A stretch of 64,000 bases of DNA from Gonapodya prolifera JEL478 (Eukaryota > Monoblepharomycota > Monoblepharidomycetes > Monoblepharidales > Gonapodyaceae). Both the position numbers and the translations under genes were made by a program. Location: the NCBI GenBank assembly GCA_001574975.1, contig KQ965731.1, positions 620,001-684,000 of the forward strand. The letters are read 5' to 3'. Each line of letters opens with the position of its first letter. Positions within the stretch are counted from its first letter, which is position 1. Below, one piece after another: positions 10,687-52,210 of the stretch. The notes under the pieces are model-generated. The model saw nothing but the letters and a program-made list of their open reading frames with translations, searched no databases and was not told the DNA's origin.

Positions 10687-11983
10687 ATGTCCCGCTCTCA
10701 CTCCGCGCTGGGAATAGCGCTCCTCATCGCTCTCTCGTGTGTTTCCGTAGGGAGCGCGTGGCCTCCTCCCGCAGAAGCCGGCGCATCCCTCGTCGCAGAC
10801 TCCATCGTTAACGATTTGGTGTTCCAGGCAAAGTACGCATTGGCGGCGTATTGCGAGGTGAGTTTCTGCACATCGCGTGCTGCGACCGTTTGAGCCCATT
10901 GAGCCAGCGCTGACCCAAACAACGCGTTTTCTATATCAAATTTTGCATTTCGTCCCTCCTTCTGTCCCCACCTCCTCGCCAGGTCGGACGAGTCTCTTTG
11001 ACGTGGACCTGCGTTAACCAACTGTGTGGAGGTGAAACAGCGGGCACCAAAGTCCTCGCTGTTCTTGAAAACTCCCTCAGAGCCGACAACTACGGCGGCT
11101 TTCTGGCATTGCAGGTGCGCTCGATTGCGCTTTTGTGTTTTGTTCGCGAACTTTGCTTGACAACCCACAATTTTCTTTTGCGCCGATCAAACCCTCAAAC
11201 CACCCTGTCGGCTCTTTCGTCACTCCACAGCCCGGTGGCACGACAGCCGTGTTTTCTCTTGCAGGCTCTCAAGCGACGACCGACTGGGTCCTTGACGCGG
11301 CTATTCTTCCAACCTCGAATGTCCAGGACATCTTTCCCAACGCGCCCGCGGGGTCGACTGCACACCTGGGCTTCTGGGCAACTTTCAAGGCGGGGCTCCC
11401 CTCGATGCAGGTTGGTCGCGTTACACTCGGAACTGGTGCAACACTCGCTGACGGAACGCAACTCTTCTCTTTTTTTTTTTTTTTTTTTTTTTTGTTTGAA
11501 TTCCAGTACCACATAAACACAACTCTCGCCAAATACCCCTCCGTCAAGAACGTGGTCTTCACCGGCCACTCCCTAGGCGCGGTCCAACAAAGCCTGCACG
11601 CCGGATACTTCTCCGACCAACTCGCAGCGCGCAACATCACCCTACGGACCTACTCCTTCGCGCCCGCGCGCACCGTGAACGCCGTGCTCGCCGCGTACCT
11701 ATCCACGATGCCCGCGTACCAGGACGGAGCCTTCTACCGCGTCATCACGAGACAGGACCTCGTCCCGCGGATCTTGCCCCCTTGGCCGCCGACATTCTGG
11801 ACGCATTTAGGCACAGAGTATTTCCTGAACGGCTTCCTCGGGTCGAAGACCACGTACAAGTGCCCCTCACCAGCGGTCGGGGCGGAGAATTTGTACTGTA
11901 TGCAGGCGGTGTCGCCGCTTGAGTTGAGTTTGGTCCCAGGGCATATCGATTACTTTGGACTGGACAACTTTTTTTTGAAGTGA
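10687..11983 (+). CDS. Secreted class 3 (alpha/beta-hydrolase) triacylglycerol lipase
   Basis: Predicted extracellular lipase of 319 residues from four exons, all joined in phase 0: 10687-10857, 10983-11114, 11231-11410 and 11507-11983. The first 24 residues are a signal peptide (ALGIALLIALSCVSVGSAW). The fold proceeds through FQAKYALAAYCE, GGTTAVFSLAGSQATTDW (oxyanion-side strand) and HLGFWATFKAG. The nucleophile elbow is TGHSLGAVQQSL, with the serine near residue 183. A candidate catalytic Asp lies in ITRQDLVPR and a candidate His in LVPGHIDYFG near the C-terminus. The length suits secreted fungal Lipase_3 enzymes. Exon 2 carries Cys residues (TCVNQLCGG), compatible with secretion. Intron 3 contains a long T run, listed separately. 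Substrate could be triglyceride or another ester such as feruloyl groups. Confidence 0.9.
11470..11493 (+). repeat. Uninterrupted T run in lipase intron 3
   Basis: Twenty-four consecutive T residues lie 13 nt upstream of the acceptor (AG at 11505-11506) and form an extreme polypyrimidine tract. Length variation between strains or sequencing slippage would be expected here. Confidence 0.9.
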
Positions 11984-17822: not shown

Positions 17823-19655
17823 TCATAGAAGATTCAGTTCGTCCTCTTCGGACACAACGTTCTCCTTCTCCGCTCCTGCAGGCACGGTCGCACCCCGGTC
17901 GCTGAGCTCCGGCGGCTCAGGGCTGTATCCACCCATCTCCCGTTTCTCCTCGATGCGTTCCAACGCTCTGGGGGATACGAACCGCATACCGCTCACATCT
18001 CTACCAATGCCGGTATTAGGTTTACTCTCTGCCGATCCCGATCCCGCACGCATGTCCCAAAAGTACCGCGGCGGCTCCTCGGCCGAGAACGCGGGCATGA
18101 TTCGGGGCGCGACGGGCGTCCCCGTAGCGGCCGGGTCGGCGTCCCACCCGTGCGCGGGCAGGACACCTTCGATCCTCCCCTCTGAAATCACACGGCGCAC
18201 CTCGCTCATAGGAAGACACAGCCCCGTTGTCAGCTGGCACAGACCGCTCGGGGGCTCGCCCAGCCCGCCATTGTCGTCCCTGGCGGCCCACAGTACCCCC
18301 CACGTGAGGGACAAGAACGCGTCGAAGTCCGGGTCGGCTTCCACGCGGGCAAGGAGCTGCACGTACACTTCTCGGGGGCGGCTCAGCACGGCCGCCCGCG
18401 ATACCACGACGCGGGGCGCGGAGGGTGTCAGGATGTCGGGTGGCAGGATGTGCAAGAGTGGGCACAGGTGGTCCCTGAGGAACTTGTACACGACGAGGAG
18501 GCGGTGGGCCGAGGAGTGTTCGGCACGGAACTCGGCCGAGGCGATCGCGGCGTCCAGGGTAGTTGTGGCCGAAAACGTCTCCCCCCGCTCTTGGCGCCAT
18601 TTCATGGCCCGGGCGACGGCCTCGCGGAGGAATAGGCGGGCTGGCGGGGAGTCGGTCAGGGAGGCGAACGCGTGGCGTTCGAGGAGGGGCCAGTTGAGGA
18701 AGGCGAGGTGCGCCGCGGTGTCGGCTACCCCCGAGCCAGTGCGGGAAGATGGGAGCAGGGCGACCATGTCGGGAAGGGTGTCGTTGGTGTTGGCGGGGTA
18801 GTGGTCGAGGATGAAACGGAGGTATGATGCGGCGTGGGAGCGGGAGCGTGGGGTATCAGAGGATGAGGAAGAGCTGTTGAGAGGGTAGAAGACGCGAGGC
18901 AGGTTGGCGAAGAATTTGGCCGCCCAGGATGCAGAGGTGGTGTCGGTTCCGAGTTGGGAGAGGACGAGGAGTCGGCGGGGAGGACTGCCGGGGGTAGGCG
19001 CAGGTGTCTCAACTGGGAGTTTCGTCGAGAGGAGTGCTGACTGCGTTTGGGACGCGGCTGGCGCTTCCGTTTTGGGCGCGTATCCGGCATGGTCAACATC
19101 ATTCAAGGTCGTGGTCGTCTCAGTCGGACTCGGTTGGGATTTGGGCAGCGTCAGAGGGCCAGTGGAGACTCCTGAAACCGGCGTAGCTTGTCCTCCCTTG
19201 GTCCCGGACTCCTCGACAGTACTAAGCATTGCAGGAGCTGTGCTCCTCCCCACGTCATTCCAACCTTCCGTTTCCCGGCCATCAAAGTCCACATCCCCAA
19301 CGTCCTCCACGACCCAGTTATTTGCGAGCGCTCCATCGTCGACTAGAGGCGACCCCGCGGGCCTCCTGTACGCTCCGTCCCAGCTCGCGCCCGACCACCA
19401 CGTCAAGAGAGCGGCTGCCACCACGACGACGACAAGCATGGGCTTCCACCTGCCCCTTATCCCCCTCCTGAATCCGGCGAAAACGTCCCCGCATCCCCGC
19501 CCCAATGCTCTGCGCTGCTGCTGCGTCCGCCGTGGATGTTTCCAGTCCGTGGCCCAGGACGGCGGAGATGCGCGCGGGGTTGGCGGCGGCGCCTTGAAGC
19601 CCGCCTTCTCGCGCTCTGCAAGACTCAGCGGATCCTGGTTGCGGCGCGGCCACAT
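17823..19655 (-). CDS. DUF3431 family type II membrane protein
   Basis: Single open frame of about 610 residues from ATG 19655 (MWPRRNQDPLSLAEREKAGF); in-frame ATGs up to 19811 exist but precede a less plausible N-terminus. A cytosolic Pro/Arg-rich tail leads to one transmembrane segment, PMLVVVVVAAALLTWW. A Ser/Thr/Pro-rich stem comes next, then the DUF3431 core: RLLVLSQLGTDTTSASW, HAASYLRFILDHYPANTND, LPDMVALLPSS, LLVVYKFLRDHLCPLLHI, and PRVVVSRAAVLSRPREVYVQ. The last resembles the VS-x-RP-x-EFY motif of the family, which is often linked to fungal cell-surface glycans but has no settled function. The C-terminal 120 residues are disordered and acidic (VVSEEDELNLL). It faces the fucosyltransferase-like gene tail to tail with only about 170 bp between stops. 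Confidence 0.75.
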   Translation of the reverse strand: MWPRRNQDPLSLAEREKAGFKAPPPTPRASPPSWATDWKHPRRTQQQRRALGRGCGDVFAGFRRGIRGRWKPMLVVVVVAAALLTWWSGASWDGAYRRPAGSPLVDDGALANNWVVEDVGDVDFDGRETEGWNDVGRSTAPAMLSTVEESGTKGGQATPVSGVSTGPLTLPKSQPSPTETTTTLNDVDHAGYAPKTEAPAASQTQSALLSTKLPVETPAPTPGSPPRRLLVLSQLGTDTTSASWAAKFFANLPRVFYPLNSSSSSSDTPRSRSHAASYLRFILDHYPANTNDTLPDMVALLPSSRTGSGVADTAAHLAFLNWPLLERHAFASLTDSPPARLFLREAVARAMKWRQERGETFSATTTLDAAIASAEFRAEHSSAHRLLVVYKFLRDHLCPLLHILPPDILTPSAPRVVVSRAAVLSRPREVYVQLLARVEADPDFDAFLSLTWGVLWAARDDNGGLGEPPSGLCQLTTGLCLPMSEVRRVISEGRIEGVLPAHGWDADPAATGTPVAPRIMPAFSAEEPPRYFWDMRAGSGSAESKPNTGIGRDVSGMRFVSPRALERIEEKREMGGYSPEPPELSDRGATVPAGAEKENVVSEEDELNLL

Positions 19656-20249
19656 GTCAACGACGGAGAGGTGGCCCAAAGAGCGACTGTGGACGTCTGA
19701 CCGCGGTCGGCCCTCAATGCCCACCATCAAAACTGCCGTTCTTCTCATTTTCGAATTTCGAATCCCACGTCCAGAATTAAATTTTGTTACGAAAAGGCTG
19801 CTGACTCCCAATCACATAATTGTGGAGTGCCGCGTGGTAGAACTTTCATTTTCCGAAACGGTCAGGATGTTCGATATTACTTTGTCGACAATCATGAATG
19901 CCTGGATTCTTCAGAGGGAAAATATCAGAGGAAACAGAATTGTACTCAAGGAATGCCACAGTGCAGTGAGGTTGCGTTTCCTGAATTACAGTCTTGGCTG
20001 GGAAACGAACAACATCGCACTTGGAATTATACACGAATAAGTTGAACGTCTTGTGGCGTTCTTCCAGAAGAGGGGGGGAATATTGCGCGTTGCTTGTCAA
20101 ACGTGACAGTATGTTGTAAAATGAAGCGCTGCACTTTCGTCGGACATCGTCACCCCAAACAGTAAAATGGCGTTTCATACGAGGTACGACCTCTGATCGC
20201 CTGCCTCTGCCTCTCTGTCGGTTCTCACCACATCACCTTTGATGTCTCC
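19656..20249. other. Intergenic region
   Basis: About 600 bp. A plus-strand frame at 19827-20045 lacks any domain, and its codons look unselected. The stretch must include the DUF3431 promoter on the minus strand. No RNA or repeat was recognised. Confidence 0.4.
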
Positions 20250-21966: not shown

Positions 21967-24821
21967 ATGACACCTTCCACGCCGAAAACAGAGTCTCCTC
22001 CACCGTTCTCGCACTCTCACTCGCCGCCACTTGGTCTCACGCTTCCCCCGGCTGCGGAAAAGATTGATCCGCTCATCGAGTCCACGACTTCTGTTCGCAC
22101 GCTGCATGCTGGAATAGACTCGCACGCGGACGGAGACAGTGCACAAACGTTCTCGGTCCAGCAGCACATATGGACTGTGTCGCCTGCGGTAGCTGCCTTC
22201 ACTAGGCTTTCGCAGGTGCGCTCACTCACGCAACTCTGCTAGTTCTAGCCGTGCTGATACTCCATTATTTGCTCTCATGTCTACTCTCTACTTTCTATTC
22301 TCCTACTGTCATGGCTCCCAACCCGCACCCCCTTTCGTACTGGACACGTCTCAGCTCTACACTTCCACTCTCCTCCCCCTCCTCTCTCACATGACTCTCC
22401 TCCTCTCTCCCTCACCGCTTCCCGCCCCTTCCATCTCCACTCTGGCGTCTCATTCCTCCCGCGCTGTTTCACTCGCTTCCTCTCTCGCGCACTCATCATT
22501 CTCTCCGCTCATCCACATCGCAACTTGGGATGACCCCTGGCAAGCGGCGCTTGTGTCGCTCGCCTGCGCAACTTGCCTCGCCTCAGGTCCCGGCGTGCTG
22601 ACTAGAACGGCAATCGCACTGCTCCTTCCCGCGTCCATGCTGCGTACCCTCGTCGCGCCCGTGTTTAACCCAGAGGGAAAATGGTCCGTGTCGGCATCAG
22701 CATCTTCATCTCTCACCTCCGCCAACCCGTCAACATCCATATCACCATCGCTGTCGTACACACTTGCCCAAGCCCAAGATGTCTCCGGCTTCATCATCCA
22801 TTCCGCTGCAGCTCTTTCCCACATTCTTTCCTGGAATGCGTCTCAGGTCTCAACTCGTTTCTTCTGGACCTGGTGCGTCGTCGTCGCACCAATCGTCGCA
22901 TTGGTCGATGTTTCAACCCTCGTCTGGGCAGCAGGTACGGCTTATACCCTCTCGCATCGTCCTTTCCTCGGGATAATCCATCGCCTGTATCCTCGCTCAG
23001 AATTCCTCGCATCGCTGAGCGTCCTCCTCATCCTCCCTCTCATCTCCACGTTCCCACGTCTGCGACACGCATGTCTCTCCTCGCTCATGCAGATCTCGGG
23101 TGAATCACCCGACGGGGCGGACGAGAACCCTTCCGATGCCAAGTGGCATTCACCGAACCTGGACGACCCCGAAAGGAGACTTAAGACCGGAGACGGAGTC
23201 AAAGTGCCCAAGAGTGCCGCGTTGGTCTGGGGTCTGGACGAGCGCGGCGGCGCCAAGGGCACAGGCGTGCCTGAGGGTGAGAGGATCATCCGAGGTGCGT
23301 TGTTGAAGAATGTGGGAAAAGTGGAGTGTTGGTGCGGAGTTCGCGGATGATATTGGGGAAAGTGCGAAGAGAGTCAGTCGATAGCGTCAATACCCACAGA
23401 CCTGGAGAATGTCTCAACGGTGGTTGAGTCGATCCTGTCTGCAAAAAACTTCTCTTCAGCCCAACTCACCTTAAAACCCCTCTCCAGTAATCTCCGTCCT
23501 GCGCCTCCTCCCATCCCCAACTGTACCCACATCCACACCCGTCGCCCACGCCACAGCAAGTACAGCAGGACTGCTCTCCCTCTCCACATTATGGCTGTCC
23601 TTCTCGCCCACGCCGTCTTCACCCACCGCCTTCTTCCCCCTTTCCGCCTCCGCGACCAGTCCGGCCACGACCCCGAGTGCGGGCGACGAGGTAGATATGG
23701 AAGTGAACAGCGGCAGCGTGCGGGTCCCTTTGGGGTGGGTCGATGATGTGGACGAGGTGCGTTGCACGGCCAGCGTGTGCTTGCGGGGTTGGTGGAATTC
23801 TGACCCAACGCCTTGATGGTTCCAGGTCGATGTGCAGGCGTTCCCGATGGGAGTCAAGGCCCTGCGCGTGAGATGCGTAGCGGGCGGGCCGGGGGATGGC
23901 AAGGAGGTGAGTTGGGTTTTGGGGGCTGGTGGGATCTACTCGTGCGAATTGACTCAACGGTGTTATGTAATGCAGTTCCTCTTCACTGCCGCCGAGGACT
24001 CGGCATCAATCACGGACTTCGTGGCCGACGCGAAGCAGCACTTGGCGTTCTTACTCGAGGGGGGCGCGCTGGCGCTGGTTCGTGGGAATGTGGAGCCGGA
24101 CGACGTGGAAGGGCAAAGGGAAGTAGAAGACAAGCCACAGCAACGAATCGCTGGTACTCTCACTACTCATCGAGCTGACGATGGGGGCAACCCCGGCGGG
24201 GGCACGCTCGTGCAACGGCCGCCGTCCTTGCTGGAAGTGCCGTCGCCTCCCACGACGCCGCGCCCAACCCGATCCCCACGGCCTCTCCTCCCAGACCAGC
24301 CGCTTTTGCGTACTCCGTTTGGCGGCCCCACCCCAACCGCGGCGGCTGCGGCACTGTATGACACGCTAGACGCCCCGGTGCGTAGGTTCGTCCTGACGGC
24401 GCCGAGAGTGGTGGGCACGGGAATGCTCAAGCACACCGAGTACCTCCTCGTTGAGCCATCTCGGGGTGCTGTGTCAGGTGCTCCTGCATCGGCGTCGGCG
24501 TCGTATTCAATGTCGGGCGGGTCCACGCCGCGCTTCCCTCGCCCCATCGTAACCACGGGTGTGCGGCGGCGATACACCGAGTTTTCTGCCCTGCACCGAG
24601 CGCTGAGCAGCGTGTACGTCGGACCCTGGTGCGACATGCTCGTTGTCCCGCCTCTTCCCCCCAAACGGCGGCTCGGGCGATTCGACGATGCGTTCGTGGA
24701 GGAGCGCAGGAGGGAGCTCGAGGCGTGGGTGAATAGAGTTGCGGCTGATGCGAGTGTCAGACAGACCAGGGAGTTTAGGGCCTTCGTGGGCTGGAGGGAC
24801 GGCGAGGGCGGGTTGGAGTGA
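21967..24821 (+). CDS. Membrane protein with C-terminal PX domain (possibly two genes)
   Basis: ATG 21967 opens a Ser/Pro-rich N-terminus; exon 1 ends LSQ before GTGCGC near 22217 and joins in phase 0 to LYTSTLLPLLSHMTLLLS. Hydrophobic segments follow (PWQAALVSLACATCLASGPG, RTAIALLLPASMLRTLVAPV, FFWTWCVVVAPIVALVDVS, FLASLSVLLILPLI), loosely recalling Pex24-type membrane domains. That frame stops at 23350. From about 23476 a second frame without its own upstream ATG reads TASTAGLLSLSTLWLSF, VPLGWVDDVDEVD, FLFTAAEDSASI. It ends in a PX phosphoinositide-binding domain: GMLKHTEYLLVEPS, RRRYTEFSALHRALSS, LVVPPLPPKRRLGRFDD, ELEAWVNRVAADASVRQ. The missing ATG suggests both parts are one gene joined by an intron between about 23300 and 23475, whose donor I cannot fix. 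A role at an organelle membrane is plausible. Confidence 0.5.
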
Positions 24822-25332
24822 TTCGGCGGCAGATGAAGGATTAAGGCACTGGATGGTGTGATGTGATGTGGGAATTTTGGGGAACTGGCGATATCACGGG
24901 GACGTTTGCACACACAACAACAGCGACATGACGCTGTGACGCTCCATTGTTTCGATCGCGAAGGGTTTGAAGATACCACTGCACCGTGTTGCATGAGTGT
25001 GTGCAGGTATCTCCGGTCACGTTTGCAAGAGTTGTACCACAATCACGTTCGGTAATTGCACAGTTTGTGTTTGCAAGTTGGAAATAAAAGTTGGCATCGC
25101 ATTGCTTAGTTCTCTGTTGTTCTTTGCATGTGTGTTAATTCAAGTTCAGCTGGTGAAGTCACTTTTCGGTTTTCCCGGTCCCTTTACAAAGAAAGATTAG
25201 CCGGACCACGGCACTTCGAAGGTGCTGCACGTCGTTTCCAGCGTTTGTGACTTCGGAATCATTTCCAAGATTCTGCCAATCAACCAGAGGACCGCGGTCG
25301 CAGCCTGCGGCCTCGCATCGGCTTCCTGGAGA
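24822..25332. other. Intergenic region with a small Cys-rich hydrophobic ORF
   Basis: About 510 bp. A frame at 24997-25200 (+) encodes 67 residues with several Cys and a hydrophobic stretch (GIALLSSLLFFACVLIQVQL). Without an expression or family signal I leave it as an observation. Confidence 0.35.
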
Positions 25333-27088
25333 ATGACACCACGAAACAGTTGTGCAACGGGATCAGAGAAATTCAGCAGGGGTGGGGAGACCCCAAATAG
25401 AGACACCGGTCAGCGCCGCAGACACTATTCTTCGTGGAGAAACAAGGGCGAGTCGGCTGACCGTTGGCAGAGCGACAGTGGTGATTGGACCGAGCCAACG
25501 CACAACCGTACGGACTCATGGCGCGAGGAGCACCATGGATGGACATCATTTCCGCAAAGATTTCAGGACCGTGGCTATAATGGGTCCTCCTGGCGTGACC
25601 GAAGGGACCCACAACCGAAACGTCAAAAACTGTGGTATCAGTCGAGCGGCTCTTCAAAATACAGACATGAGTCCAAACGGGAACTTGGACAGCAGTATGC
25701 GGAAGACCGCAATTTCAGCCCTCTTCAGAGGCCTTGGAAGTCGATGGTATCTGATAGCGAGAGTCCAGGAGACAATGCTCGTGGTGCATTTACCTTCATT
25801 GCAATGACATACAACCTTCTTGCCCAGTCTCTTCTTCTCGAAAGCATTGATTCTCTTTACCGCCAGATGCAACCCTGGATGTCGGAATGGTCCAACCGCA
25901 AGCGAGGACTGCTGACCGAAATAGAAATGTACGACCCGGACGTCATGACGTTGCAGGAAATAGACGAGGAGCACTGGCACAGCGACATAGAACCACACTT
26001 GCGGGGTTTGGGATATCGCGGTTACTACCAAAAGCGAACTGGGACGGCTAGAAGTGATGGAGTAGCCATTTTAGTCCGCGAAGCGAAGTAAGTGAATATT
26101 ATCAGTGTCTTTGTTTTTTTTTGGTGAATGCTCAGCAACGACCATATCTCCAGGTTCGAAATTGTGGCATCACGTACCGTTTGTCATAAGCAGAACAGTT
26201 TCATGGACCGTGATAACGTCGGTATGGTTGTCCTTCTGCGGTCCAAGGAAGGTGAGAATCTTCGAAAACAAAGAAACATCGCCGAAGAGATGAAAGCTAA
26301 TACTGGAATGCAGCACCAGACCAACATGTGTGTACGGCAACGACCCATCTCCTTTACAACGGTAGACGGTCATTCATTAAGATGGCCCAATTCAAGTGGC
26401 TCGCGGACAATGCTGCGGATTTGGTCAAACAACACCTTTCCTCAACTCGTCATCGTGACGTTCCATTCTTGATATCGGGAGACTTTAATTCAACGCCCAA
26501 CTCGGTTGTAGCACGATTCGTTCGAAGTGGCTACGCAAACCTCACCGGAGGGCTTGAGATGTACATGTCGGGGCAATTTCGAGGAGACGTTTGGACACGA
26601 TGGAACAAAGAGCCTTCGCAAGTGGAGCCACTGGGTTCCGAAACGTCTCACTTCAACAGCTCAAGCGATGGAGCGTAAGTGGTCCATGTCCACTCTTTCC
26701 TTATTGAAATCTCTGATCTTCTTCTTTATAAAGGCTCTCCACGCCTCCTAATCCTCCAGAGCCCCTTTCTCGGGCGCCTCAAACCATATCCCATCCCTTG
26801 CGACTTCAGTGCGTGTACCATCAACATCACCTGGGACCGCACGGTGATTATGTCACGACGTATCACCATGGAACAAGAGAGGCGGTGGACTATCTCCTGG
26901 TAGGCTCGTTCAAGCCACTACCCAGTGAATCTGACTTTGCCGAAGTGCCAAGGACCTTGATCAAAGCCATAGAATATGTTCCCCCTCCGGTGGCCCGCAG
27001 CATTCGGATGATGCCTAATGCGAATGCGGCGAGCGATCATATTCCACTGGTTGCCAAGTTTGGAGTATTTGTCACGGAACCCAGATAA
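25333..27088 (+). CDS. Angel/CCR4-type endonuclease-exonuclease-phosphatase (EEP) family protein
   Basis: Probable poly(A)- or 2',3'-cyclic-phosphate-directed RNA nuclease of the EEP superfamily, closest in layout to Angel/CCR4 catalytic domains. Four exons: 25333-26087, 26154-26251, 26314-26674 and 26734-27088; all joins are in phase. The N-terminal 150 residues are Arg/Trp/Ser-rich and disordered (HYSSWRNKGESADRWQS). The catalytic core then shows TYNLLAQSLL with its conserved Asn, VMTLQEIDEEHW with the Mg-binding Glu, KRTGTARSDGVAILVRE, VATTHLLYN (here CTATTHLLYN), FLISGDFNSTPNS, REAVDYLLVG and the terminal SDHIPLVAKF with the catalytic Asp-His pair. No leucine-rich repeats precede it, which argues for Angel rather than Ccr4. 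The start at 25333 is the first ATG in frame. Confidence 0.9.
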
Positions 27089-37943: not shown

Positions 37944-38658
37944 TCACTCCGTCATCAGATCTCCTTCCTTCTCAACGCTCGCAAGCTTGCTGTCCCCCCT
38001 CGGCGGCGGCGAGACGGGCGGTTTCTCGTAAGGCGGCGGGAGACTTCCGCTTCCATTCTCCACGACGACCACGACCTGGGGTGCACTGCCGCCGTCTTGC
38101 CTGATCCTGCGGGCGCGCTCGCGCCTCTTGCAGATGAAGAATACAGCCGCGGCCAGCGTCAGACCGAGCACCACGCCAGCAGACATGAGGCCCACGACGA
38201 TGCCGGGAGTCATCACGACGGGGATGGGGCTTGAGTAGCTGTATGGAAGCCAGGCGTAGGCCACAGTCGAGGTCAGCACGCCCGTGGGGAATAAAGTCGT
38301 CGATGTCAGCACGCCCGTAGGGAATGAGGTCGTCGACGAGGTCAACCCCCCGGGGGGGTTGAACGGGAGGGCGCTGGTGTAGATAGGACCGGCCGGGTCG
38401 TTTCTCGGGACGTTGGTGACTAAGTTGACGCGGGTGACGGTTGGAGCGACTTCCGGGTCGGCGCCTGGGTGGGTGGAGGTTCAGGTTGGGCGTGTCAGTG
38501 TTGGTGGAAGATTTGGGAGGAGAGAGTCGAGGGTACTCACGTACAAACACAGCGGTATCAGCCGCCGTAGCGCACGCCAACGCTGCCGCCACGGCAACGA
38601 TGCATGAAATCCTCGCCACGTTCGCGCTCCTGTAGGTGCGGTGTCCGAATTCCATCAC
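37944..38658 (-). CDS. PPxY family membrane protein 1 (single-pass, signal peptide)
   Basis: Two exons, 38541-38658 and 37944-38464, give 212 residues. Exon 1 is a signal peptide exon (ISCIVAVAAALACATAA) ending at an A(D)TAVFV-R junction in phase 1. The ectodomain starts ADPEVAPTVTRVNLVTNV and contains a near-repeat (TSFPTGVLTS, TLFPTGVLTS). One transmembrane helix, PGIVVGLMSAGVVLGLTLAA, is followed by the basic stop-transfer CKRRERARRI. The cytoplasmic tail has APQVVVVVENGSGSLPPPYE and ends GDSKLASVEKEGDLMTE. PPPY is the class I WW-domain ligand used to recruit NEDD4/Rsp5 ubiquitin ligases. It points away from its three paralogues. No known family name was recognised, so function is inferred only from layout. 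Confidence 0.8.
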
Positions 38659-38769
38659 TTCAATGTAAACCCTTGACGATGGTAAGGAGGTGCACGCAAC
38701 TATTTAAATGCGTAGAGGTCTCGGAGGGCGGGGGGCGCTCCACGGACTACGGACGGATCCGCGGTCGTT

Positions 38770-38781
38770 GCCTCGTGAGGC
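38770..38781. promoter_or_regulatory. Palindrome upstream of PPxY gene 1
   Basis: GCCTCGTGAGGC lies about 112 nt before the ATG at 38658. It is identical to the palindrome upstream of gene 2, and near-identical to that of gene 3, at almost the same distance. Confidence 0.6.
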
Positions 38782-39124
38782 ACTTGAACAGTACTAACGT
38801 ACCAAGACCGCGGAGATTCATGTTTATTCCCGCCAGGTGGGGTTCCCTGAGACTTGATGAGGGTACGGGAGGTGGAAGAATAGCATACGCAGGTGTGTGG
38901 TATCTCGTGTGCGAAATCGGTGCGTAAAAGCGATGAACGAGATGTGCGCCACTCCCATCTGTTTGAATTGTAGCCGGTCCACACCGTCAATATGATTCTG
39001 TCCAAGAACGATGACAAAAGAATAGGATAAACTACCAGCTTATCAAACTAGCTCTTTCTACGTGGTCAAATATGATTGGATGTCCGGCAGAATTTCAACA
39101 CCATCAACTGCGGTCGCAGGAGCC

Positions 39125-39170
39125 TCATCAGCAGCCACCGACCTCAGAAGAGGATGCGTCCTGCTATTTT
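39125..39170 (-). repeat. Shared upstream block (GGTCGGTGGCTG), inverted copy
   Basis: On the minus strand: CTTCTGAGGTCGGTGGCTG then GACCGCAGT, matching 39643-39680 on the plus strand upstream of gene 2 and 41313-41350 upstream of gene 3. It lies about 480 nt upstream of gene 1, in the matching orientation. Confidence 0.75.
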
Positions 39171-39269
39171 TGCTATTCTTCTTGGCGGAGCATAAGGTCT
39201 AGCGCGACCCTTTGCGAGGAACGGTGGGTTTTGGTTGCGTGTACGGTTTATGATGATGTTTTTGTTGCT

Positions 39270-39345
39270 TGTGGGGAAAATACCAGGAGAAATAAATATA
39301 TTCGGGGGGAATCATCGTCCGCTCATTGCTCATAAAAGCCGCGGT
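39270..39345 (+). repeat. Orphan 3' block of a lost PPxY gene copy
   Basis: GGAGAAATAAATATATTC, GGGGGGAATCATCGTCCG and CTCATTGCTCATAAAAG match the 3' flanks of PPxY genes 2 and 3 in plus orientation, but no coding sequence precedes it here. It is probably the remnant of a deleted family member between genes 1 and 2. Confidence 0.6.
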
Positions 39346-39642
39346 TCCTTAACGTTCGCGATGTTCCTATGTACACTACGAGCGAAGGTTCGTCTCATCC
39401 ATATCCCGAAGTGCCGCTTTCGTTTGTATTTCACGGAAGGCTACACAAGAAAGGTGGAGATACTTATGTTATTGCAAAAGGTACAATTGTCCAGCGTTCA
39501 ACGAGGACGCAATTTAAGAGATCGCGTAAAAATATACATGACATGATCGCTTTGTGGACATTGATTCAAGCAACGCGCAACCAGAAACTAACAAACGGTC
39601 GCACACTGCCCTTAATTTGCACCCAAAATGGGGGTAACTGCC

Positions 39643-39680
39643 TTCTTCTGAGGTCGGTGGCTGTCCCCCGACCGCAGTGA
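39643..39680 (+). promoter_or_regulatory. Shared upstream block of PPxY gene 2
   Basis: CTTCTGAGGTCGGTGGCTG plus GACCGCAGTGATGTTGTGG, about 325 nt before the ATG. The matching block of gene 3 is at 41313-41350 (about 325 nt), and a weaker one (TATCGGTGGCTG) lies at 42921-42932 before gene 4. Similarity between genes 2 and 3 extends through most of the interval to the ATG. Confidence 0.65.
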
Positions 39681-39855
39681 TGTTGTGGGGAACGTCCCAT
39701 TTTATTTTATCAGACCGTTTCCACGGGGTTTCCGGCCAGGAGCTCCCACACATCTGCGTGGACGAATTCTTCGCAACCTATCCCCACATCGCATCTCTGC
39801 GAACCGCACCGAGAACCGGTTATTAAATTCTGTCTCGTGGCTGGAACCGTTTTGA

Positions 39856-39867
39856 GCCTCGTGAGGC
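39856..39867. promoter_or_regulatory. Palindrome upstream of PPxY gene 2
   Basis: GCCTCGTGAGGC lies about 113 nt before the ATG at 39980, a perfect 12-nt dyad. Confidence 0.6.
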
Positions 39868-39979
39868 GACCAGGGAGCACCGAGGCCGCATGCTACCGAG
39901 ACCTCTTCTCGGTAAATTTCATTATTTCCTCCCTCCTTGGCCCGTCGTCGAGGACGTACTCTGACGTGCACGAAGAGCG

Positions 39980-40808
39980 ATGGAGGTTGGGCCGCGCACC
40001 ATGAGGAATGCAAATGAGCTAAGGATTGCACGCGTCGCCGCGGTGGCTGTAGCGTTGGCATGCGTTGCGACAGTTGCGGTTGCGGACGTTCAAGACGATG
40101 CCATACGGAAACGTGAGAATTTTGCCGGCACCACCGTAACCACGCTCGCATCCCACCAACCCCCACAAATACCCACTCCCACCCAGGTGCTGACCCAGAC
40201 GCTCCTTTTTCTGGCACTGCCCTCACAAGGACCGTCGTGGATCGGGCCTCAACCGATGCCTGGGGAGCCCCAATAGCCACCGTCACGTGGCTGCTGTCAC
40301 CAGCCACTACCTTCCGGCCCCAATGCCAGCCGGTGTCATTGTCGGAAGTGTCGCCAGCAGCTCGGTTCCCGCCTCAATGGCGACAGGGACCGTCTGGGCT
40401 GTCCCCAGCCACTACCAGCCGATCCCGATGCCTAACGATGCCGTCGCCTCGGCTGCTCCCAGCTACCAGCCCGCCCCGATGAGCTCCGCTGTCGTCTGGG
40501 CTGTCCCCAACTACCCGGGTACCTCCCAACTGAGCGCCGCCATCGCGGTGGGCCTTGTGGGGGCCGGCGTGGTTCTTGGATTGGCGCTCTCCCTGGTGGC
40601 GTTCACGTTCTACAAGAGGCGCGAGCGCAGAATCAAGGAAGAGGGCGATGCTCAGCCCGATGCGTCACCCGACGGCGCTTCACCCCAGGTCGTGGTAGTG
40701 GTTGAGAACGGAAGCGGAAGCCTTCCTCCCCCGTACGAAAATTCGAACACGACGCCCATGGTGGTGCCGCCGAGGATTGAAAGCAAGTTAGCGGGCGACA
40801 AGGAGTAG
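39980..40808 (+). CDS. PPxY family membrane protein 2 (reading-frame conflict in ectodomain)
   Basis: Exon 1 (39980-40112) encodes a signal peptide (VAAVAVALACVATVAVA) and ends RK-R in phase 1, like its paralogues. Exon 2 starts at 40187 with the family sequence R-ADPDAP, but that frame stops at about 40482. The repeats, transmembrane helix and tail are in another frame: WAVPSHYQPIPMPNDAVA, SAIAVGL-type helix AIAVGLVGAGVVLGLALSLV, stop-transfer YKRRERRI, GSGSLPPPYEN and end IESKLAGDKE at 40808. Frames are stop-free around the switch point (40190-40480), and I found no intron of suitable length and phase. So the locus is either frameshifted or contains a sequence error, or uses an unrecognised splice. 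The cytoplasmic half is well preserved. Confidence 0.65.
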
Positions 40809-40884
40809 GACGAAGCAAGGAGAGATCTGATGACGGAGTGGAAGAAATTAGCTGGATTTGTTCGTGTGGGACGAACCAAAACAA

Positions 40885-40960
40885 GGAGAAATAAAATTTA
40901 TTGTTCTGGGGGAGTCTTCGCCCACTCACTGCTTCACGAAATCTGCGGGGAGTGGAAAAT
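40885..40960 (+). repeat. Shared 3' block, copy of PPxY gene 2
   Basis: AAGGAGAAATAAAATTTATT, TTCTGGGGGAGTC, CCACTCACTGCTTCACGAA, ATCTGCGGGGAGTGGAA. This is the closest match to the minus-strand block after gene 1. It contains an AATAAA polyadenylation-like signal. Confidence 0.7.
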
Positions 40961-41140
40961 TGACCGGGAGCGGTGGACGGTGGACGATGTGATGCTTGGG
41001 GGGCAATGCATGCACTTTTCCCCTAGAGCAAAACCCGTGGATGCAAATTTATGAGATCGTGTAAAATTACTCACAGGAACGCTTTTATGAATAATGATAA
41101 ACAAGCACCTCTCTGCGTTGCCGCTCAAATTTATCAATTG

Positions 41141-41210
41141 AAATCTGACCTCAACTACACTGAAGTCTGACCCGTCACCCTGAAGTCTGATTTTTGAACA
41201 CTGAAGCGGT
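41141..41210 (+). repeat. Short tandem repeat, about 20-bp unit
   Basis: TGAAGTCTGA occurs at 41161-41170 and again at 41181-41190, exactly 20 bp apart. Partial units lie before (AAATCTGACC at 41141) and after (ACACTGAAGCGG near 41199). It is absent from the corresponding place upstream of gene 2. Confidence 0.7.
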
Positions 41211-41531
41211 AGTGTCTTGCTTGTAACAACCACACGCAACAAGAAACCAAGGTTCCCAACAAAGGGACGCACAGCGACCTTACTTTGCACCAAAAATAGC
41301 TGTGATTACCTTGTCCTGAGGTCGGTGGCTGTCCCGCGGCCGCAGTGATTTTTGTGGGGAATGGCGCAAACATGGCATCAGACCTTTTCCACAATGTTTC
41401 AATGCAGGAGCTGCCACACACTGGCGTGGACAAGTTCTCCGCATCGTTTCCCGCATTTCATCTCTAGGAGTGGCACCAATGGCGGCAATAAGGTAATTAT
41501 TCCGTCTCGCTGTGCTGGGGGAACAGTTTGT

Positions 41532-41543
41532 GCCTCGAGAGGC
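41532..41543. promoter_or_regulatory. Palindrome upstream of PPxY gene 3
   Basis: GCCTCGAGAGGC, about 102 nt before the ATG at 41645. It differs from the gene 1/2 palindrome at one central position. Confidence 0.6.
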
Positions 41544-41644
41544 AAACGTGGCCGCCTCTTCCGCCAAGGCGAGACCCCTCGTACCCACATTTAATTACTT
41601 CCCGTTCGCGGTCGCCAAGGATCTACGCTGACGTGCGCGAAGTC

Positions 41645-42391
41645 ATGGACGCTCCCGTGTGGAAAAGTGAGTCATTGGCTCCGCAAACCCGCCGGCCGCA
41701 ACACCCCATCACACTGACACTCGCATCCCCACCAACCCACTCCCACTCAGGCGCTGAACCAGAAGTTGCCCCGGTAGCGACGGCCGTTGCCTGGGTGCCC
41801 AACGACCAGCCGGCCGCAATACCGACCTCTGCCGTCTCTTGGGCTGTCCCCAACAACAACCAGCCGGCCCCGATAAGGTCCGCCGTCGCCTGGCCTGCAC
41901 TTGGTAACCCGGAACCCGCGATGCCTAATGCTGCCGCTGCCTGGGCTTCACCCGGCCCGATGCCGAACGCTGCCGCTGCCTGGGCTCCCTTCCCCAGTTA
42001 CGGGTCCGCACCAATGCCCAACGTTGCAGTTGCATGGGCTGACCCCGGCTACCCGAGGCCCCCACGCCCGATGAGCTCCAGCGTCGCGTGGGCTGCCCCT
42101 TACTACTCGCGCTCCGCCTCGCTCAACCCGGCGGTCGCGGTCGGCCTTGTGTCTGCCGGCGCGGTGCTCGGTGCGGTGCTGGTATTGCTGGTGTTCTTGT
42201 TTGTCAAGAGGCGCGAGCGCAGGATCAGGAACGAGGGGTACGATCAGCTCTACGGCGGTCTCGGCGGTCCAGCACCAGTCATCGTGATCATGGACGGCGG
42301 AAATCTCCCGCCGCCTTACGAGAAGCTGATCAAGACGGCGGTGGCGGCGGTGCCGAGGGGAGAGAGTAAACTTGAAGGTGACCAGGAGTAG
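41645..42391 (+). CDS. PPxY family membrane protein 3 (no signal peptide)
   Basis: Exon 1 (41645-41666) encodes only MDAPVWK plus one base. Its donor context (GTGTGGAAA then GTGAGTC) matches that of gene 4, where a full signal peptide precedes it, so the signal-peptide segment has been lost. Exon 2 (41751-42391) gives S-AEPEVAPVATAVAW and then a repeat-rich ectodomain of Pro/Ala/Trp modules: TSAVSWAVPNNNQPAPI, RSAVAWPALGNPEPAMPN, AAAAWASPGPMPN, AAAAWAPFPSYGSAPMPN, VAVAWADPGY. Helix AVAVGLVSAGAVLGAVLVLL, stop-transfer VKRRERRI, GGNLPPPYEKL and terminal RGESKLEGDQE follow. Total is 220 residues. Insertion could still occur through the helix as a reverse signal-anchor; that is inference. Confidence 0.8.
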   Translation: MDAPVWKSESLAPQTRRPQHPITLTLASPPTHSHSGAEPEVAPVATAVAWVPNDQPAAIPTSAVSWAVPNNNQPAPIRSAVAWPALGNPEPAMPNAAAAWASPGPMPNAAAAWAPFPSYGSAPMPNVAVAWADPGYPRPPRPMSSSVAWAAPYYSRSASLNPAVAVGLVSAGAVLGAVLVLLVFLFVKRRERRIRNEGYDQLYGGLGGPAPVIVIMDGGNLPPPYEKLIKTAVAAVPRGESKLEGDQE

Positions 42392-43290
42392 GAAGACGAA
42401 AGGAGATCTGATGTCTGAGTGGAACGGCACGAAGAGGGGAAAGGGCGCGGAAGACCTAAGACGGAGGGGTAGATGATGTTGTTTGAGGGATAAAAAACGA
42501 TGAGAAAATAAAGTTATTATGGGGGAATTCGCGTCCGATCACTGGTCACTGCTCATGTGTCCCCCTCGATTGTTCAAGAAAAAGTTTGACGGCACATCCA
42601 CATTTCGAAGAGCCCCATCACCGCGAAAACATATCTTGTTTTTGTTTCCCTTCCGAGAAGACCGAGCATTTGGGTTAGAATGAAAGATGCACGGGGATAT
42701 TTATATGAGAGGTTTCGATCCCTCCACAATGGAAAAATTCTAATCTTCTGAGGTGATATAGTACGACGGTTTTGCTCAGGTACGGCGGTGTTTTATGCAA
42801 GTGCAACAGGGAATCAACAAGGGGGCAGCTGGGCGTCGGGCGAAACCCAACATGCCCCGCAAAGGGTGGCGTTCTGACGCTACTTCACCAAGCAATAAAA
42901 CCTCAGGAACCTGCCTTGGGTATCGGTGGCTGTTTAAGTACCCGCAGCCTCGGAGGCGGGGTGGGTGGTGGGTGGCAGTGCACCGACGCAATTCTTCCCA
43001 ACCCTATCCGGCCCCGATTTCCCTCCACGACCCGTCCCCACCTGCTTGGCTAAACCTCTCTCCCCCGTTTCCCGCGGCGCACGATCGGGACCGCCCGAAC
43101 TGCAGTGTGTGGTACGATCCGCCAATAGCGGCGCGCAAGCAATGGCCCCTGATGCCTCCCCGCGTGGCTATGAGACGCCTGAGCGGGCGTCCTATTGTGC
43201 ACGCCTTCCCCTCAGCGACGCAATAAGGTTTTATGAACACTGCATAAGCGTCCTTTGTGCCTTCTCCCACCATACACAGCCAGATCGAAG
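42392..43290. other. Intergenic region between PPxY genes 3 and 4
   Basis: About 900 bp. It holds the gene 3 3' block (42495-42550, ATAAAGTTATTATGGGGGA), a weak copy of the upstream block (42921-42932) and the gene 4 dyad near 43177-43188. Otherwise no feature was seen. Confidence 0.45.
43177..43188. promoter_or_regulatory. Dyad upstream of PPxY gene 4
   Basis: GCCTGAGCGGGC within the larger imperfect dyad GACGCC...GGGCGTC lies about 103-114 nt before the ATG at 43291. The sequence differs from the gene 1-3 palindrome but the position is the same. Confidence 0.35.
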
Positions 43291-43898
43291 ATGAAGATGA
43301 ACTCGCAATCGCAATCGCAATCGCAGGCATCCCGCAGAGGTACCGATACAACACCCTCGTGGAGCCGAAACGCCGCGGCGCTGCTCGGTGCCTTGGCGTG
43401 CGTGGCGGCCGTCGCGGCGGACGTGGGGGATCGCAGTGCTGCTGCGGTGTGGAAACGTGAGTCGAGACCGACTGGCGCCCCCTCCTCACCCGCCCAATCG
43501 CTCATACACACCACACACCGCACCCACCCACCCACCCAGGCTCCTCCGACGACATCCCGACAAGTCCCGCCCCCGCCGTCAACGTCGTCGTGCTGTCCGT
43601 CGCGATTGGCGGGTCCATTCTGGGCGTCGTGCTGGGATGCTGCGTGTTCGTGTGCTGCAGGAGGAGGGAGCGGAGAATGCAGCAGGCGGCGGAGAGAATC
43701 AAGGAGGCGGCTCAGGGGCAGGGGCAGGGGCAGGGGCAGGGGAGCAATCAGTCAATGCCCCGGCCGTCCCCATACACCGCCCCCGCCCGCAACGCCGACG
43801 CCCCGCCCGCGGAGATAGAGAGTGGGACACTTCCCCCGGCGTACGACACGCTGTCAACGGCCGTGCCGATGCCGACCGTGGGGGAGCGGAAGGTGTGA
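43291..43898 (+). CDS. PPxY family membrane protein 4 (short ectodomain)
   Basis: Exons 43291-43456 and 43540-43898 encode 174 residues. Exon 1 has a Ser/Gln-rich start then a signal peptide (AAALLGALACVAAVAA) and ends VWK-R in phase 1 like the paralogues. The ectodomain is only about 20 residues (SSDDIPTSPAPAVN), without the Trp/Pro modules. Helix VVVLSVAIGGSILGVVLGCC leads into RRRERRM and a Gln/Gly microsatellite (AQGQGQGQGQGQGSN). The tail holds EIESGTLPPAYDTL, still a PPxY motif (PPAY), and ends VGERKV. It is the most divergent member, and I found no clear 3' block after it. Confidence 0.78.
43713..43743 (+). repeat. GGGGCA hexamer microsatellite in PPxY gene 4
   Basis: About five copies of a six-base unit encode Gln-Gly dipeptides in the cytoplasmic tail. 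Length polymorphism would keep the frame. Confidence 0.85.
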
Positions 43899-50791: not shown

Positions 50792-52210
50792 ATGGGAAAG
50801 ACTGCCCGTGCCGTGAAAGCTCGATGCGGGCACAGCTCAAAGCCAATGAAAGGCCGAGTTGTGTCGGCACCAGTCCACGTTCCATTTCAGATATGCAAAC
50901 TTCCCGCCGACATCATCATCAAGATTTCCAAGCTCTGGAGCGCCAGACCTCTCGGCCTCCCCACGGCTGCATTGAATCGGTTTCTCTACACGCTTTTATC
51001 AGACCCCGCACTGGTGGCCGGCCGAGCGATTAGGCACCACGGTCGGATTCACGATGCGTTCGCAATGGAGATGTTTCGAGCAGCCGTCGTGGAGGACTTT
51101 AGAGTGGCTGATGCGCTTTTGAATCGCGGTGCCGATGTGAATCACCTCAAGAATGAATTTAACGAGTTCGGGGATTTCGTCAACTCGTCTACACCGTTAA
51201 TGAAAGCTTGTGTGCGCGGCTCCGTGAAAGCCGTCAGGTTTCTTTGCGAGCGCGGAGCAAAAATCGACATACCCGACGACCGCGGCAACAACTCACTCGC
51301 AGAAGCGTGCTCCCAAGTCAATGTAGATATGGTGCAGGTTCTTCTATCGTTTGGCACGTCGCTCTCAAGGAAGGCATTGCTTGAGGCATGCCAATCTGGT
51401 AATTTGGAACTGATCAAGCGCTTGACAGCACACCCAACGTTTGAAGCCTGGAACGCGAAAGAGGGCGATGGAGTTGGGGCTCCGCGTGAGATTTACGAGC
51501 ATTTCATGATCACAGCATGCCGCGTCGGCCACGTCGACGTTGTGCAAATGCTGCTGCTGCGGGGACTCGACCCCGACGCTGGTTGCAAAAACACTTTCCA
51601 ACCCGATGGACGGATCCACAGCGCGTTCTACACTACACCCCTCATGATCGCCATCTCATCGCGCCAGGATGCGATCGTCAATCTGCTATTGCAACACGGC
51701 GCAGACGTGAATCTCGTCGCGTCTGACGGCTTCACAGCCTTGCTGAATGCTTGCGTCAGCGGGCAAGTTTCCACCGCGCGGAAATTAGTGGACCGCGGTG
51801 CGAACGTCAACATTGGGGGCAAAGGTAGTGCCCTGCACTACGCGTGCGTCTCCAAGAACACGGAACTCGTCAAGCTCCTTATAGAGCGCGGTGCTGACGT
51901 GGACACAGGGTCAGAGTTTGCCCAGTTCTCCCCGCTTCACAGCGCGTGGACAGTTGAGGTAGCCCAGCTTTTTCTGGATATGGGGCTGGACGTGAACAGT
52001 CGAGATGTTGTAGGGGAAACACCTATTTTCAACGCTATTCAATCGCTGAACGCTCCACTCATGGCGTTTCTGTTGGACCGGGGGGCCAAAATGCGTATTA
52101 GGAATAGGGTCGGGGTGATGCCGCTCATGGCTGCGGAGAAGCACGGTCTGACAGGGGACGAGGGTCGCGAAGTTCGCGCGGTGTTGGTGGCGAGAGGGTA
52201 CATGAAGTAG
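50792..52210 (+). CDS. F-box-like / ankyrin-repeat protein, intronless
   Basis: Single exon of 472 residues. A basic N-terminus precedes an F-box-like segment (FQICKLPADIIIKISKLWSA, LNRFLYTLLSDPALVAGRAI). About nine to ten ankyrin repeats follow, for example EDFRVADALLNRGADVNHL, SVKAVRFLCERGAKIDIP, HVDVVQMLLLRGLDPDAG, QDAIVNLLLQHGADVNLV, QVSTARKLVDRGANVNIG, NTELVKLLIERGADVDTG and VEVAQLFLDMGLDVNSRD, ending REVRAVLVARGYMK. The same order of modules is found in the gene at 29246, so both belong to an expanded adaptor family. The lack of introns contrasts with that gene. Confidence 0.85.
   Translation: MGKTARAVKARCGHSSKPMKGRVVSAPVHVPFQICKLPADIIIKISKLWSARPLGLPTAALNRFLYTLLSDPALVAGRAIRHHGRIHDAFAMEMFRAAVVEDFRVADALLNRGADVNHLKNEFNEFGDFVNSSTPLMKACVRGSVKAVRFLCERGAKIDIPDDRGNNSLAEACSQVNVDMVQVLLSFGTSLSRKALLEACQSGNLELIKRLTAHPTFEAWNAKEGDGVGAPREIYEHFMITACRVGHVDVVQMLLLRGLDPDAGCKNTFQPDGRIHSAFYTTPLMIAISSRQDAIVNLLLQHGADVNLVASDGFTALLNACVSGQVSTARKLVDRGANVNIGGKGSALHYACVSKNTELVKLLIERGADVDTGSEFAQFSPLHSAWTVEVAQLFLDMGLDVNSRDVVGETPIFNAIQSLNAPLMAFLLDRGAKMRIRNRVGVMPLMAAEKHGLTGDEGREVRAVLVARGYMK

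What the first reader, a model, noticed from the sequence alone, without database searches (positions are those of the whole stretch)
37944..43898. Local family of four undescribed signal-peptide/TM/PPxY membrane proteins with variable ectodomains
Seen: four genes share one phase-1 intron after a signal-peptide exon, an R-A-(D/E)-P-(E/D)-x-A-P ectodomain start (three members), one helix, a (K/R)RRER stop-transfer, an LPPPYE or LPPAYD motif and (three members) a terminal E/D-SKL-acidic tail. Ectodomains range from about 20 residues to long Trp/Pro/Ala modules. Known: PPxY motifs recruit NEDD4/Rsp5-type WW domains. Inference: a surface family with a constant ubiquitin-ligase-binding tail and a fast-changing exterior, such as surface sensors or adaptors.
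Basis: partly seen in the sequence, partly recalled or inferred. Interest (0 to 1): 0.8.

Follow-up and report, generated by a model that had tools for sequence, protein, structure and literature searches.

The report
Chytrid membrane proteins with ubiquitin-ligase tails
Four neighbouring genes in the aquatic fungus Gonapodya prolifera encode small single-helix membrane proteins whose inner tails carry a docking motif for a ubiquitin ligase that the fungus has; they look like a home-grown version of a known kind of membrane-sorting adaptor, and two of the four have altered or damaged outer halves.

Summary
The window is from Gonapodya prolifera JEL478, and the four-gene cluster is real. All four proteins have one transmembrane helix, a (K/R)RRER stop-transfer and a PPxY motif (LPPPYE x3, LPPAYD x1), and a short phase-1 intron can be placed at the same spot in all four. 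The one profile search sensitive enough to return siblings found no relative elsewhere. The genome encodes an Rsp5-type ligase (C2, three WW, HECT), so PPxY docking is plausible but untested. Tail dN/dS is 0.39-0.64 between paralogues (four of six intervals exclude 1). The one ectodomain comparison, 0.63, overlaps them, so positive selection is not shown. Best reading: a lineage-restricted set of single-pass Rsp5 adaptors or cargoes that works like yeast Rcr1 or insect Commissureless without passing a membership test for those families. New member of a known kind; moderate interest.

The parts
37944..38655 (-). G1: exon 1 38655-38541 (signal peptide), intron 38540-38465 (76 nt), exon 2 38464-37944; 211 aa. 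No counterpart was returned from the public protein set
38133..38189 (-). G1 transmembrane helix (best 19-residue window), followed by CKRRER
   Evidence: coordinates derived
38025..38042 (-). G1 LPPPYE (PPxY) motif
39980..40808 (+). G2 (public P0002, M427DRAFT_26854): exon 1 39980-40112 with signal peptide, expected intron 40113-40186; the RADPDAP frame and the helix/tail frame differ
40542..40598 (+). G2 transmembrane helix (best 19-residue window)
   Evidence: coordinates derived
40722..40739 (+). G2 LPPPYE motif
41645..42391 (+). G3 (public P0001, M427DRAFT_65275; the public model begins further upstream): minimal model exon 1 41645-41666, intron 41667-41750, exon 2 41751-42391; no signal peptide; Trp/Pro/Ala repeat ectodomain
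42149..42205 (+). G3 transmembrane helix (best 19-residue window)
   Evidence: coordinates derived
42305..42322 (+). G3 LPPPYE motif
43291..43898 (+). G4 (public P0003, M427DRAFT_150580): exon 1 43291-43456 (signal peptide), intron 43457-43539, exon 2 43540-43898; 174 aa, ectodomain about 20 residues
43599..43655 (+). G4 transmembrane helix (best 19-residue window)
   Evidence: coordinates derived
43830..43847 (+). G4 LPPAYD (PPxY) motif
39132..39141 (-). shared upstream word TCGGTGGCTG, 486 nt before the G1 ATG
39654..39663 (+). shared upstream word TCGGTGGCTG, 326 nt before the G2 ATG
41322..41331 (+). shared upstream word TCGGTGGCTG, 323 nt before the G3 ATG of the minimal model
42923..42932 (+). 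shared upstream word TCGGTGGCTG, 368 nt before the G4 ATG

Best explanation
A lineage-restricted tandem family of small type I single-pass membrane proteins that act as membrane-anchored partners of the fungus's Rsp5/NEDD4-type ubiquitin ligase. A cleaved signal peptide (three members) and the positive (K/R)RRER cluster put the tail in the cytosol. The PPxY motif docks a WW domain of the Rsp5-like ligase, which then ubiquitylates the protein itself and whatever it is bound to, sending them into endosomes and the vacuole. The repeat-built, Trp/Pro/Ala- or Ser/Thr-rich outer stalk, which differs in length and unit between members, would decide which surface partner or wall material is engaged. 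Shown here: gene structures as sequence, helix, PPxY, presence of an Rsp5-type ligase gene, no relatives outside this genome at the sensitivity used. Inferred: expression, topology, WW binding, adaptor function.
For: PPxY and (K/R)RRER in 4 of 4 tails. 6-7 Lys/Arg in the 15 residues after the best helix window against 0-1 in the 15 before it. On contig C2 of the genome, within about 6 kb and in order, a C2 domain, three WW domains and HECT pieces, the WW-HECT junction matching yeast RSP5 best among solved chains, E 4.4e-61. 3 of the 9 WW matches in the genome lie there. At least two lysines in every tail. Tail dN/dS 0.39 (G1-G2) and 0.42 (G2-G3), bootstrap fraction at or above 1 of 0.001 each. 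Precedent: yeast Rsp5 WW domains bind PPxY/LPxY, including PPAY of Sna3 (PMC2171029 and PMC2810449, passages); Rcr1 and Rcr2 are described as transmembrane Rsp5 adaptors, Rcr1 acting on chitin synthase Chs3 (PMC9105457, passage).
Against: No binding, localisation or expression data. G3 has no signal peptide and G2 a disturbed ectodomain frame, so half the family may not be made as described. Of the six tail dN/dS intervals two include 1 and two more end at 0.97. PPxY motifs are short and could bind another WW protein or none. Even for the precedents the ligase is not always needed: the same paper that groups them says Nedd4 binding is not required for Comm's midline role and Rsp5 not for Rcr1's effect on chitin deposition (PMC5578492, passages). 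The structure model is confident only for the helix (mean pLDDT 57.7). No cargo is identified.
Confidence: 0.5

Rival explanations
1. They are sensors or stalks of the cell surface (wall contact, for instance) and the PPxY serves only their own turnover: Rsp5 is the route by which they are removed, and they recruit it for no other cargo.
For: Signal peptide, Pro/Trp- or Ser/Thr-rich stalk, one helix and a short tail is also the layout of fungal wall sensors (recalled; a paper on Wsc1 aromatic clusters was seen only as a search listing with the start of its abstract, PMC9024836). At least two lysines lie in each tail. Sna3 is sorted through its own PPAY and its own ubiquitylation (PMC2171029, passages).
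Against: No wall-sensor domain in Pfam for any of the four; no N-x-S/T site and 0-2 Cys before the helix. G4 has an ectodomain of only about 20 residues yet keeps the PPxY.
Confidence: 0.25
2. A decaying orphan cluster: a local duplication whose members are being lost, with little present function beyond perhaps G1 and G4.
For: G3 lacks the signal-peptide stretch and G2 has an ectodomain frame break. No relatives elsewhere were returned. G1 was not returned from the public protein set.
Against: Exon 2 stays open for 172 (G1), 212 (G3) and 118 (G4) codons, and the G2 tail lies in a 204-residue open frame. dN/dS of the tail is below 1 in G1-G2 and G2-G3, and the motifs survive. The frame break could be an assembly error; reads were not available.
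Confidence: 0.17
3. The PPxY motif is not a working WW ligand, or binds a WW protein other than the Rsp5-like ligase, and the conserved tail does something else (for example through the Val-rich run before the motif or the SKL-acidic end).
For: 9 WW matches were found in the genome, 6 of them outside the Rsp5-like gene. The Val/Ile-rich run and the acidic end are also conserved in G1-G3.
Against: By eye and from recall the other six WW sequences look like splicing-factor or Pin1 types, while the three on contig C2 carry Y-(F/Y)-V-D-H-N...T-T-W. The PPxY is one of the few tail features kept in the divergent G4.
Confidence: 0.08

Closest known systems
Rcr1/Rcr2 of yeast (Pfam PF12273 RCR), Rsp5 membrane adaptors
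   Same: Short, one helix, cytosolic PY motifs, fungal; Rcr1 is described as a transmembrane Rsp5 adaptor that downregulates Chs3 (PMC9105457 passage; PMC5578492 passages).
   Different: No RCR match listed for any of the four at E up to 10, a limit at which the filters drop most weak matches, and none over cut-off in the genome. Rcr1 and Rcr2 have PPSY and VPEY motifs (PMC5578492 passage); these proteins have one LPPxY each and, in G1-G3, repeat-built ectodomains.
Commissureless / PRRG / CYYR-Shisa (STMC6) short L/PPxY transmembrane proteins of animals
   Same: Short single-pass proteins with L/PPxY tails, several of which bind NEDD4-type ligases or alter the level of surface proteins. Low conservation outside the motifs in insect Comm, and some (Comm, two PRRGs) lack a signal sequence, as G3 does (PMC5578492 passages). 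G4 reads GTLPPAYDTL, loosely like the Comm motif GLPSYDEAL.
   Different: No Gla domain match, no six-Cys ectodomain (0-2 Cys before the helix).
Sna3, Bsd2, Tre1/2, Ear1, Ssh4 (other yeast membrane Rsp5 adaptors or cargoes)
   Same: Membrane proteins with PY motifs that dock Rsp5; Sna3 has PPAY like G4 (PMC2171029 and PMC2810449 passages).
   Different: Other topologies or domains (SPRY in Ear1/Ssh4, PMC2810449 passage); no match to a Pfam family of theirs was listed for the four proteins, and no direct sequence comparison was made.

Membership tests
RCR family (PF12273) | match to the RCR profile over its cut-off | tested here: not met
   no RCR hit for G1 or P0001-P0003; genome search best 16.0 bits against a cut-off of 27.8, on another contig
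RCR family (PF12273) | single helix with cytosolic PY motif | tested here: met
   helix and PPxY in 4 of 4; the cytosolic side is only inferred from charge
Shisa-like (STMC6) | six-Cys ectodomain after the signal sequence | tested here: not met
   0-2 Cys before the helix, counting the signal peptide; criterion from PMC5578492 passages
PRRG / Commissureless | Gla domain (PRRG) or extended GLPSY(D/E)-type motif (Comm, PRRG4) | tested here: not met
   no Gla match in Pfam; LPPPY or LPPAY instead of LPSY
Rsp5/NEDD4 membrane adaptors (functional class) | PPxY or LPxY motif in a tail beside a helix | tested here: met
   4 of 4
Rsp5/NEDD4 membrane adaptors (functional class) | an Rsp5-type ligase with WW domains in the same organism | tested here: met
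Rsp5/NEDD4 membrane adaptors (functional class) | PY-dependent binding to the ligase and PY-dependent cargo ubiquitylation | not testable with these tools
   needs experiment
Secreted/type I membrane protein | N-terminal signal peptide | tested here: inconclusive
   hydrophobic N-terminus in G1, G2, G4; absent in G3; no trained predictor was run

The most novel reading that the evidence does not exclude
A fungal counterpart of the animal Comm/PRRG logic that arose on its own: one constant Rsp5-docking tail behind interchangeable repeat-built exteriors, used to remove particular surface proteins (in a zoosporic fungus, perhaps receptors or chitin synthases at the switch between swimming spore and walled thallus), with length change by repeat gain and loss, and signal-peptide loss giving a variant with another topology or route.
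Probability: 0.12. Interest if true: 0.6.

Novelty: new member of a known kind. Interest (0 to 1): 0.35.

Why it matters
Single-pass PPxY adaptors of NEDD4-type ligases are known from yeast and animals, but outside their short motifs they share little sequence, so relatives are hard to trace. A small family with one recognisable tail, four states of the ectodomain and a matching ligase in a zoosporic fungus would be a tractable place to ask how such adaptors arise and what their ectodomains do. It would not overturn anything known about the pathway.

Tried and rejected
Considered and set aside: membership in RCR (no profile match); Shisa/PRRG (no Cys-rich or Gla ectodomain); SKL as a peroxisomal signal (it is not at the end of the protein); sub-threshold Pfam matches (for example Orthoreo_P10 E 0.0084 and Mucin E 0.01 for G4, DAP10 E 0.05 for G3, all below their cut-offs and mostly over the helix); a promoter element shared with other PPxY genes. 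On the last: a 173-nt stretch upstream of G2 has one other match in the genome, upstream of G3. The 14-mer GAGGTCGGTGGCTG has 5 exact copies, 3 of them here (none at G4, which shares only the inner 10 bases), and with one mismatch 40 copies against 25 for the reversed control. The two exact copies elsewhere lie in near-identical segments on C59 and C138 with no PPxY membrane gene recognised within 1.5 kb. A longer gapped pattern was badly framed, matched not even the window's own copies, and says nothing.

Other weak genome hits to G4 (C96, C54, C89, C70, C26, C42; E 0.004-0.14): C96 and C54 look by eye like LRR-type membrane proteins, C89 and C42 are a near-identical pair with a helix and RPPYRHNE, and C70 and C26 gave nothing usable; none was taken as a family member. 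Literature: no title or abstract start in the listings (15 of 16 papers; 25 of 62; 8 of 22) concerns this family, and the locus tag of G3 is in no held paper; papers in those listings that I did not open could still mention it. The AlphaFold model was not taken to a fold search because only the helix is confident. Sensitivity of the homology searches: the single-protein searches (3397 candidates; tail region, 744 candidates) returned only their own query and not even the siblings, so they carry little weight; the negative rests on the profile search 17, which returned the siblings but scored only the 7999 candidates that share most words. The first script's translation of minus-strand loci was in the wrong orientation and was redone.
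Full report
ORIGIN. The window is G000:C1:620001-684000 of a 47.6-Mb genome. A protein search with G3 returned one protein, 100% identical: hypothetical protein M427DRAFT_65275 of Gonapodya prolifera JEL478, a fungus of the Monoblepharidomycetes.

GENES. Gene models were built from the sequence. G1 is on the minus strand, G2-G4 on the plus strand. G1: exon 1 38655-38541, intron 38540-38465, exon 2 38464-37944, 211 aa. G2: exon 1 39980-40112, expected intron 40113-40186. G3: minimal exon 1 41645-41666, intron 41667-41750, exon 2 41751-42391. G4: exon 1 43291-43456, intron 43457-43539, exon 2 43540-43898, 174 aa. All four introns are phase 1, 74-84 nt, GTGAG...CAG. The public set holds G2 (P0002), G3 (P0001) and G4 (P0003); G1 was not returned, although it was the first row of the profile. 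The public G3 and G4 models use this intron; the public G2 model reads through it.

G3 has no signal peptide. In the alignment of the upstream regions G3 has a gap over the stretch that encodes the signal peptide in the others, and no ATG-started frame of 20 aa or more between 40830 and 41760 has a hydrophobic start (best 12-residue score 1.19; 2.57-2.82 in the other three genes). The public G3 model, which starts further upstream, has none either (its best N-terminal score, 1.60, lies in the ectodomain). G2: the expected ectodomain start RADPDAP is in another frame than the later repeat units, helix and tail. Two joins give an open frame on paper, a later acceptor (203 aa) and the public model; neither was tested against transcripts, and an assembly error is possible.

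CONSTANT HALF. The helix is followed by KRRER (G1-G3) or RRRER (G4) and, 24 (G1), 31 (G2), 28 (G3) or 52 (G4) residues after that, by LPPPYE or LPPAYD (counted on the proteins). 21 columns are invariant in the four-way alignment of this half. The 15 residues after the best helix window hold 6-7 Lys/Arg and the 15 before it 0-1, which by the positive-inside rule (general knowledge) puts the tail in the cytosol. AlphaFold, run on G4 with three relatives, gives confidence only to the helix and its extension (residues 71-110 at 78-93 pLDDT per block of ten; mean 57.7).

IS G4 A TRUE MEMBER? It is the most divergent. A profile of the G1-G3 tails scores G4 at 33.1 bits; the best of the 1988 scored of 2000 region-wise shuffles reaches 16.8. 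That match is carried by the helix and RRER; in it the PPxY is not in register, while MAFFT aligns it. In a genome search with G4 only G1 of its siblings appeared, at E 0.0076, and an LRR-type membrane protein on C96 scored better, at 0.0038, so sequence alone is thin. Further support: same intron position and phase, adjacency, and the word TCGGTGGCTG, which occurs four times in the 64 kb, once 323-486 nt upstream of each gene in the gene's orientation (0.20 expected, 0 of 100 shuffles with four). The word was chosen after seeing the alignment, so the figure overstates the surprise.

ECTODOMAINS. The G3 minimal model has eight Trp before the helix, 13-18 residues apart, in Ala/Pro-rich units; G2 has similar units (families D1, D3, D4); G1 has different, Ser/Thr-rich units (family D5) and one Trp unit beside the helix; G4 has about 20 residues. 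No N-x-S/T site and 0-2 Cys before the helix. No Pfam or NCBIfam match over cut-off.

RATES. Nei-Gojobori estimates on the constant half: G1-G2 0.39 (bootstrap 0.20-0.69), G1-G3 0.61 (0.34-1.10), G2-G3 0.42 (0.23-0.70), G1-G4 0.54 (0.25-0.97), G2-G4 0.57 (0.30-0.97), G3-G4 0.64 (0.36-1.08). The alignable G2-G3 ectodomain, 70 codons, gives 0.63 (0.36-1.09). An earlier run with pairwise alignments gave 0.42-0.63 for the constant half. So the tail is clearly constrained in two comparisons, narrowly in two and not shown in two. The ectodomain is looser in the one comparison that can be made, the intervals overlap, and repeat units may not be aligned like with like. Synonymous divergence is 0.6-1.2, so these are old or fast-evolving copies.

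DISTRIBUTION. In the genome, the G3 tail finds G3, G2 and G1 only (3 matches at E up to 10); CTN-coded LPPPYE occurs 3 times, all here, with 1 match of the reversed control pattern. Outside, the full-length profile found P0001-P0003 only, among 7999 scored candidates. The single searches returned only their own query and not even the siblings, so their negatives are weak. All these searches need shared 5-residue words, and fast-drifting relatives could be missed.

PARTNER. The genome has 9 WW matches at E up to 0.001, 3 of them within about 6 kb on contig C2 that also holds HECT pieces and, upstream, a C2-domain piece over cut-off, in the order C2-WW-WW-WW-HECT. The WW-HECT junction matches yeast RSP5 best among solved chains (E 4.4e-61). 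By eye the other six WW sequences are of other types (recalled classification, not tested).

MECHANISM AND COMPARISON. Yeast Rsp5 WW domains bind PPxY/LPxY motifs of membrane adaptors and cargoes: Sna3 through PPAY (PMC2171029, passages), and Bsd2, Tre1/2, Ear1, Ssh4 and possibly Rcr1/2 (PMC2810449, passages). Rcr1 is reported to act on chitin synthase Chs3 (PMC9105457, passage). One paper groups Comm, Rcr1/2, PRRG and CYYR/Shisa as short L/PPxY membrane proteins and notes very low conservation of Comm outside the motifs (PMC5578492, passages). The same passages say that Nedd4 binding is not needed for Comm's midline role nor Rsp5 for Rcr1's effect on chitin, so ligase docking need not be the whole function. 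The Gonapodya proteins fit that kind by layout. They fail the profile test for RCR and the ectodomain tests for Shisa and PRRG. The best reading is therefore 'works like', not 'is a member of'.

VERDICT. No title or abstract start in the listings, and no paper, concerns this family.

Noticed in passing
window 37944-38655 (-): G1 is an intact-looking two-exon gene with no counterpart returned from the public protein set, although its three neighbours are annotated.
   Followed up: partly
window 39132-39141, 39654-39663, 41322-41331, 42923-42932: TCGGTGGCTG once upstream of each gene; in G2 it sits by eye within an inverted repeat (GGTCGG...CCGACC) that could be a binding site.
   Followed up: partly
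window 39588-39760 and 41258-41428: About 170 nt of upstream DNA are 72.5% identical between G2 and G3 (five shuffles 39-49%), more alike than the coding tails of the same pair (65%).
   Followed up: partly
L042 and L043 (contigs C59 and C138): Two near-identical segments carry the same 14-mer beside an ORF with a zinc-finger-like end and another with a signal-peptide-like, Cys-rich start: a duplicated gene pair, by eye unrelated to this family.
   Followed up: partly
L012 (C89) and L015 (C42): Two near-identical membrane proteins with a basic stop-transfer and a RPPYRHNE tail, apparently another duplicated family.
   Followed up: no
L009 (C96) and L011 (C54): Proteins that look by eye like LRR proteins with a signal peptide, one helix and a basic stop-transfer.
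   Followed up: no
window 50792-52210, 11069-11983, 17823-19811, 23817-24821, 25201-26091: Neighbouring ORFs: ankyrin repeats, class 3 lipase, DUF3431, PX domain, endonuclease/exonuclease/phosphatase.
   Followed up: no
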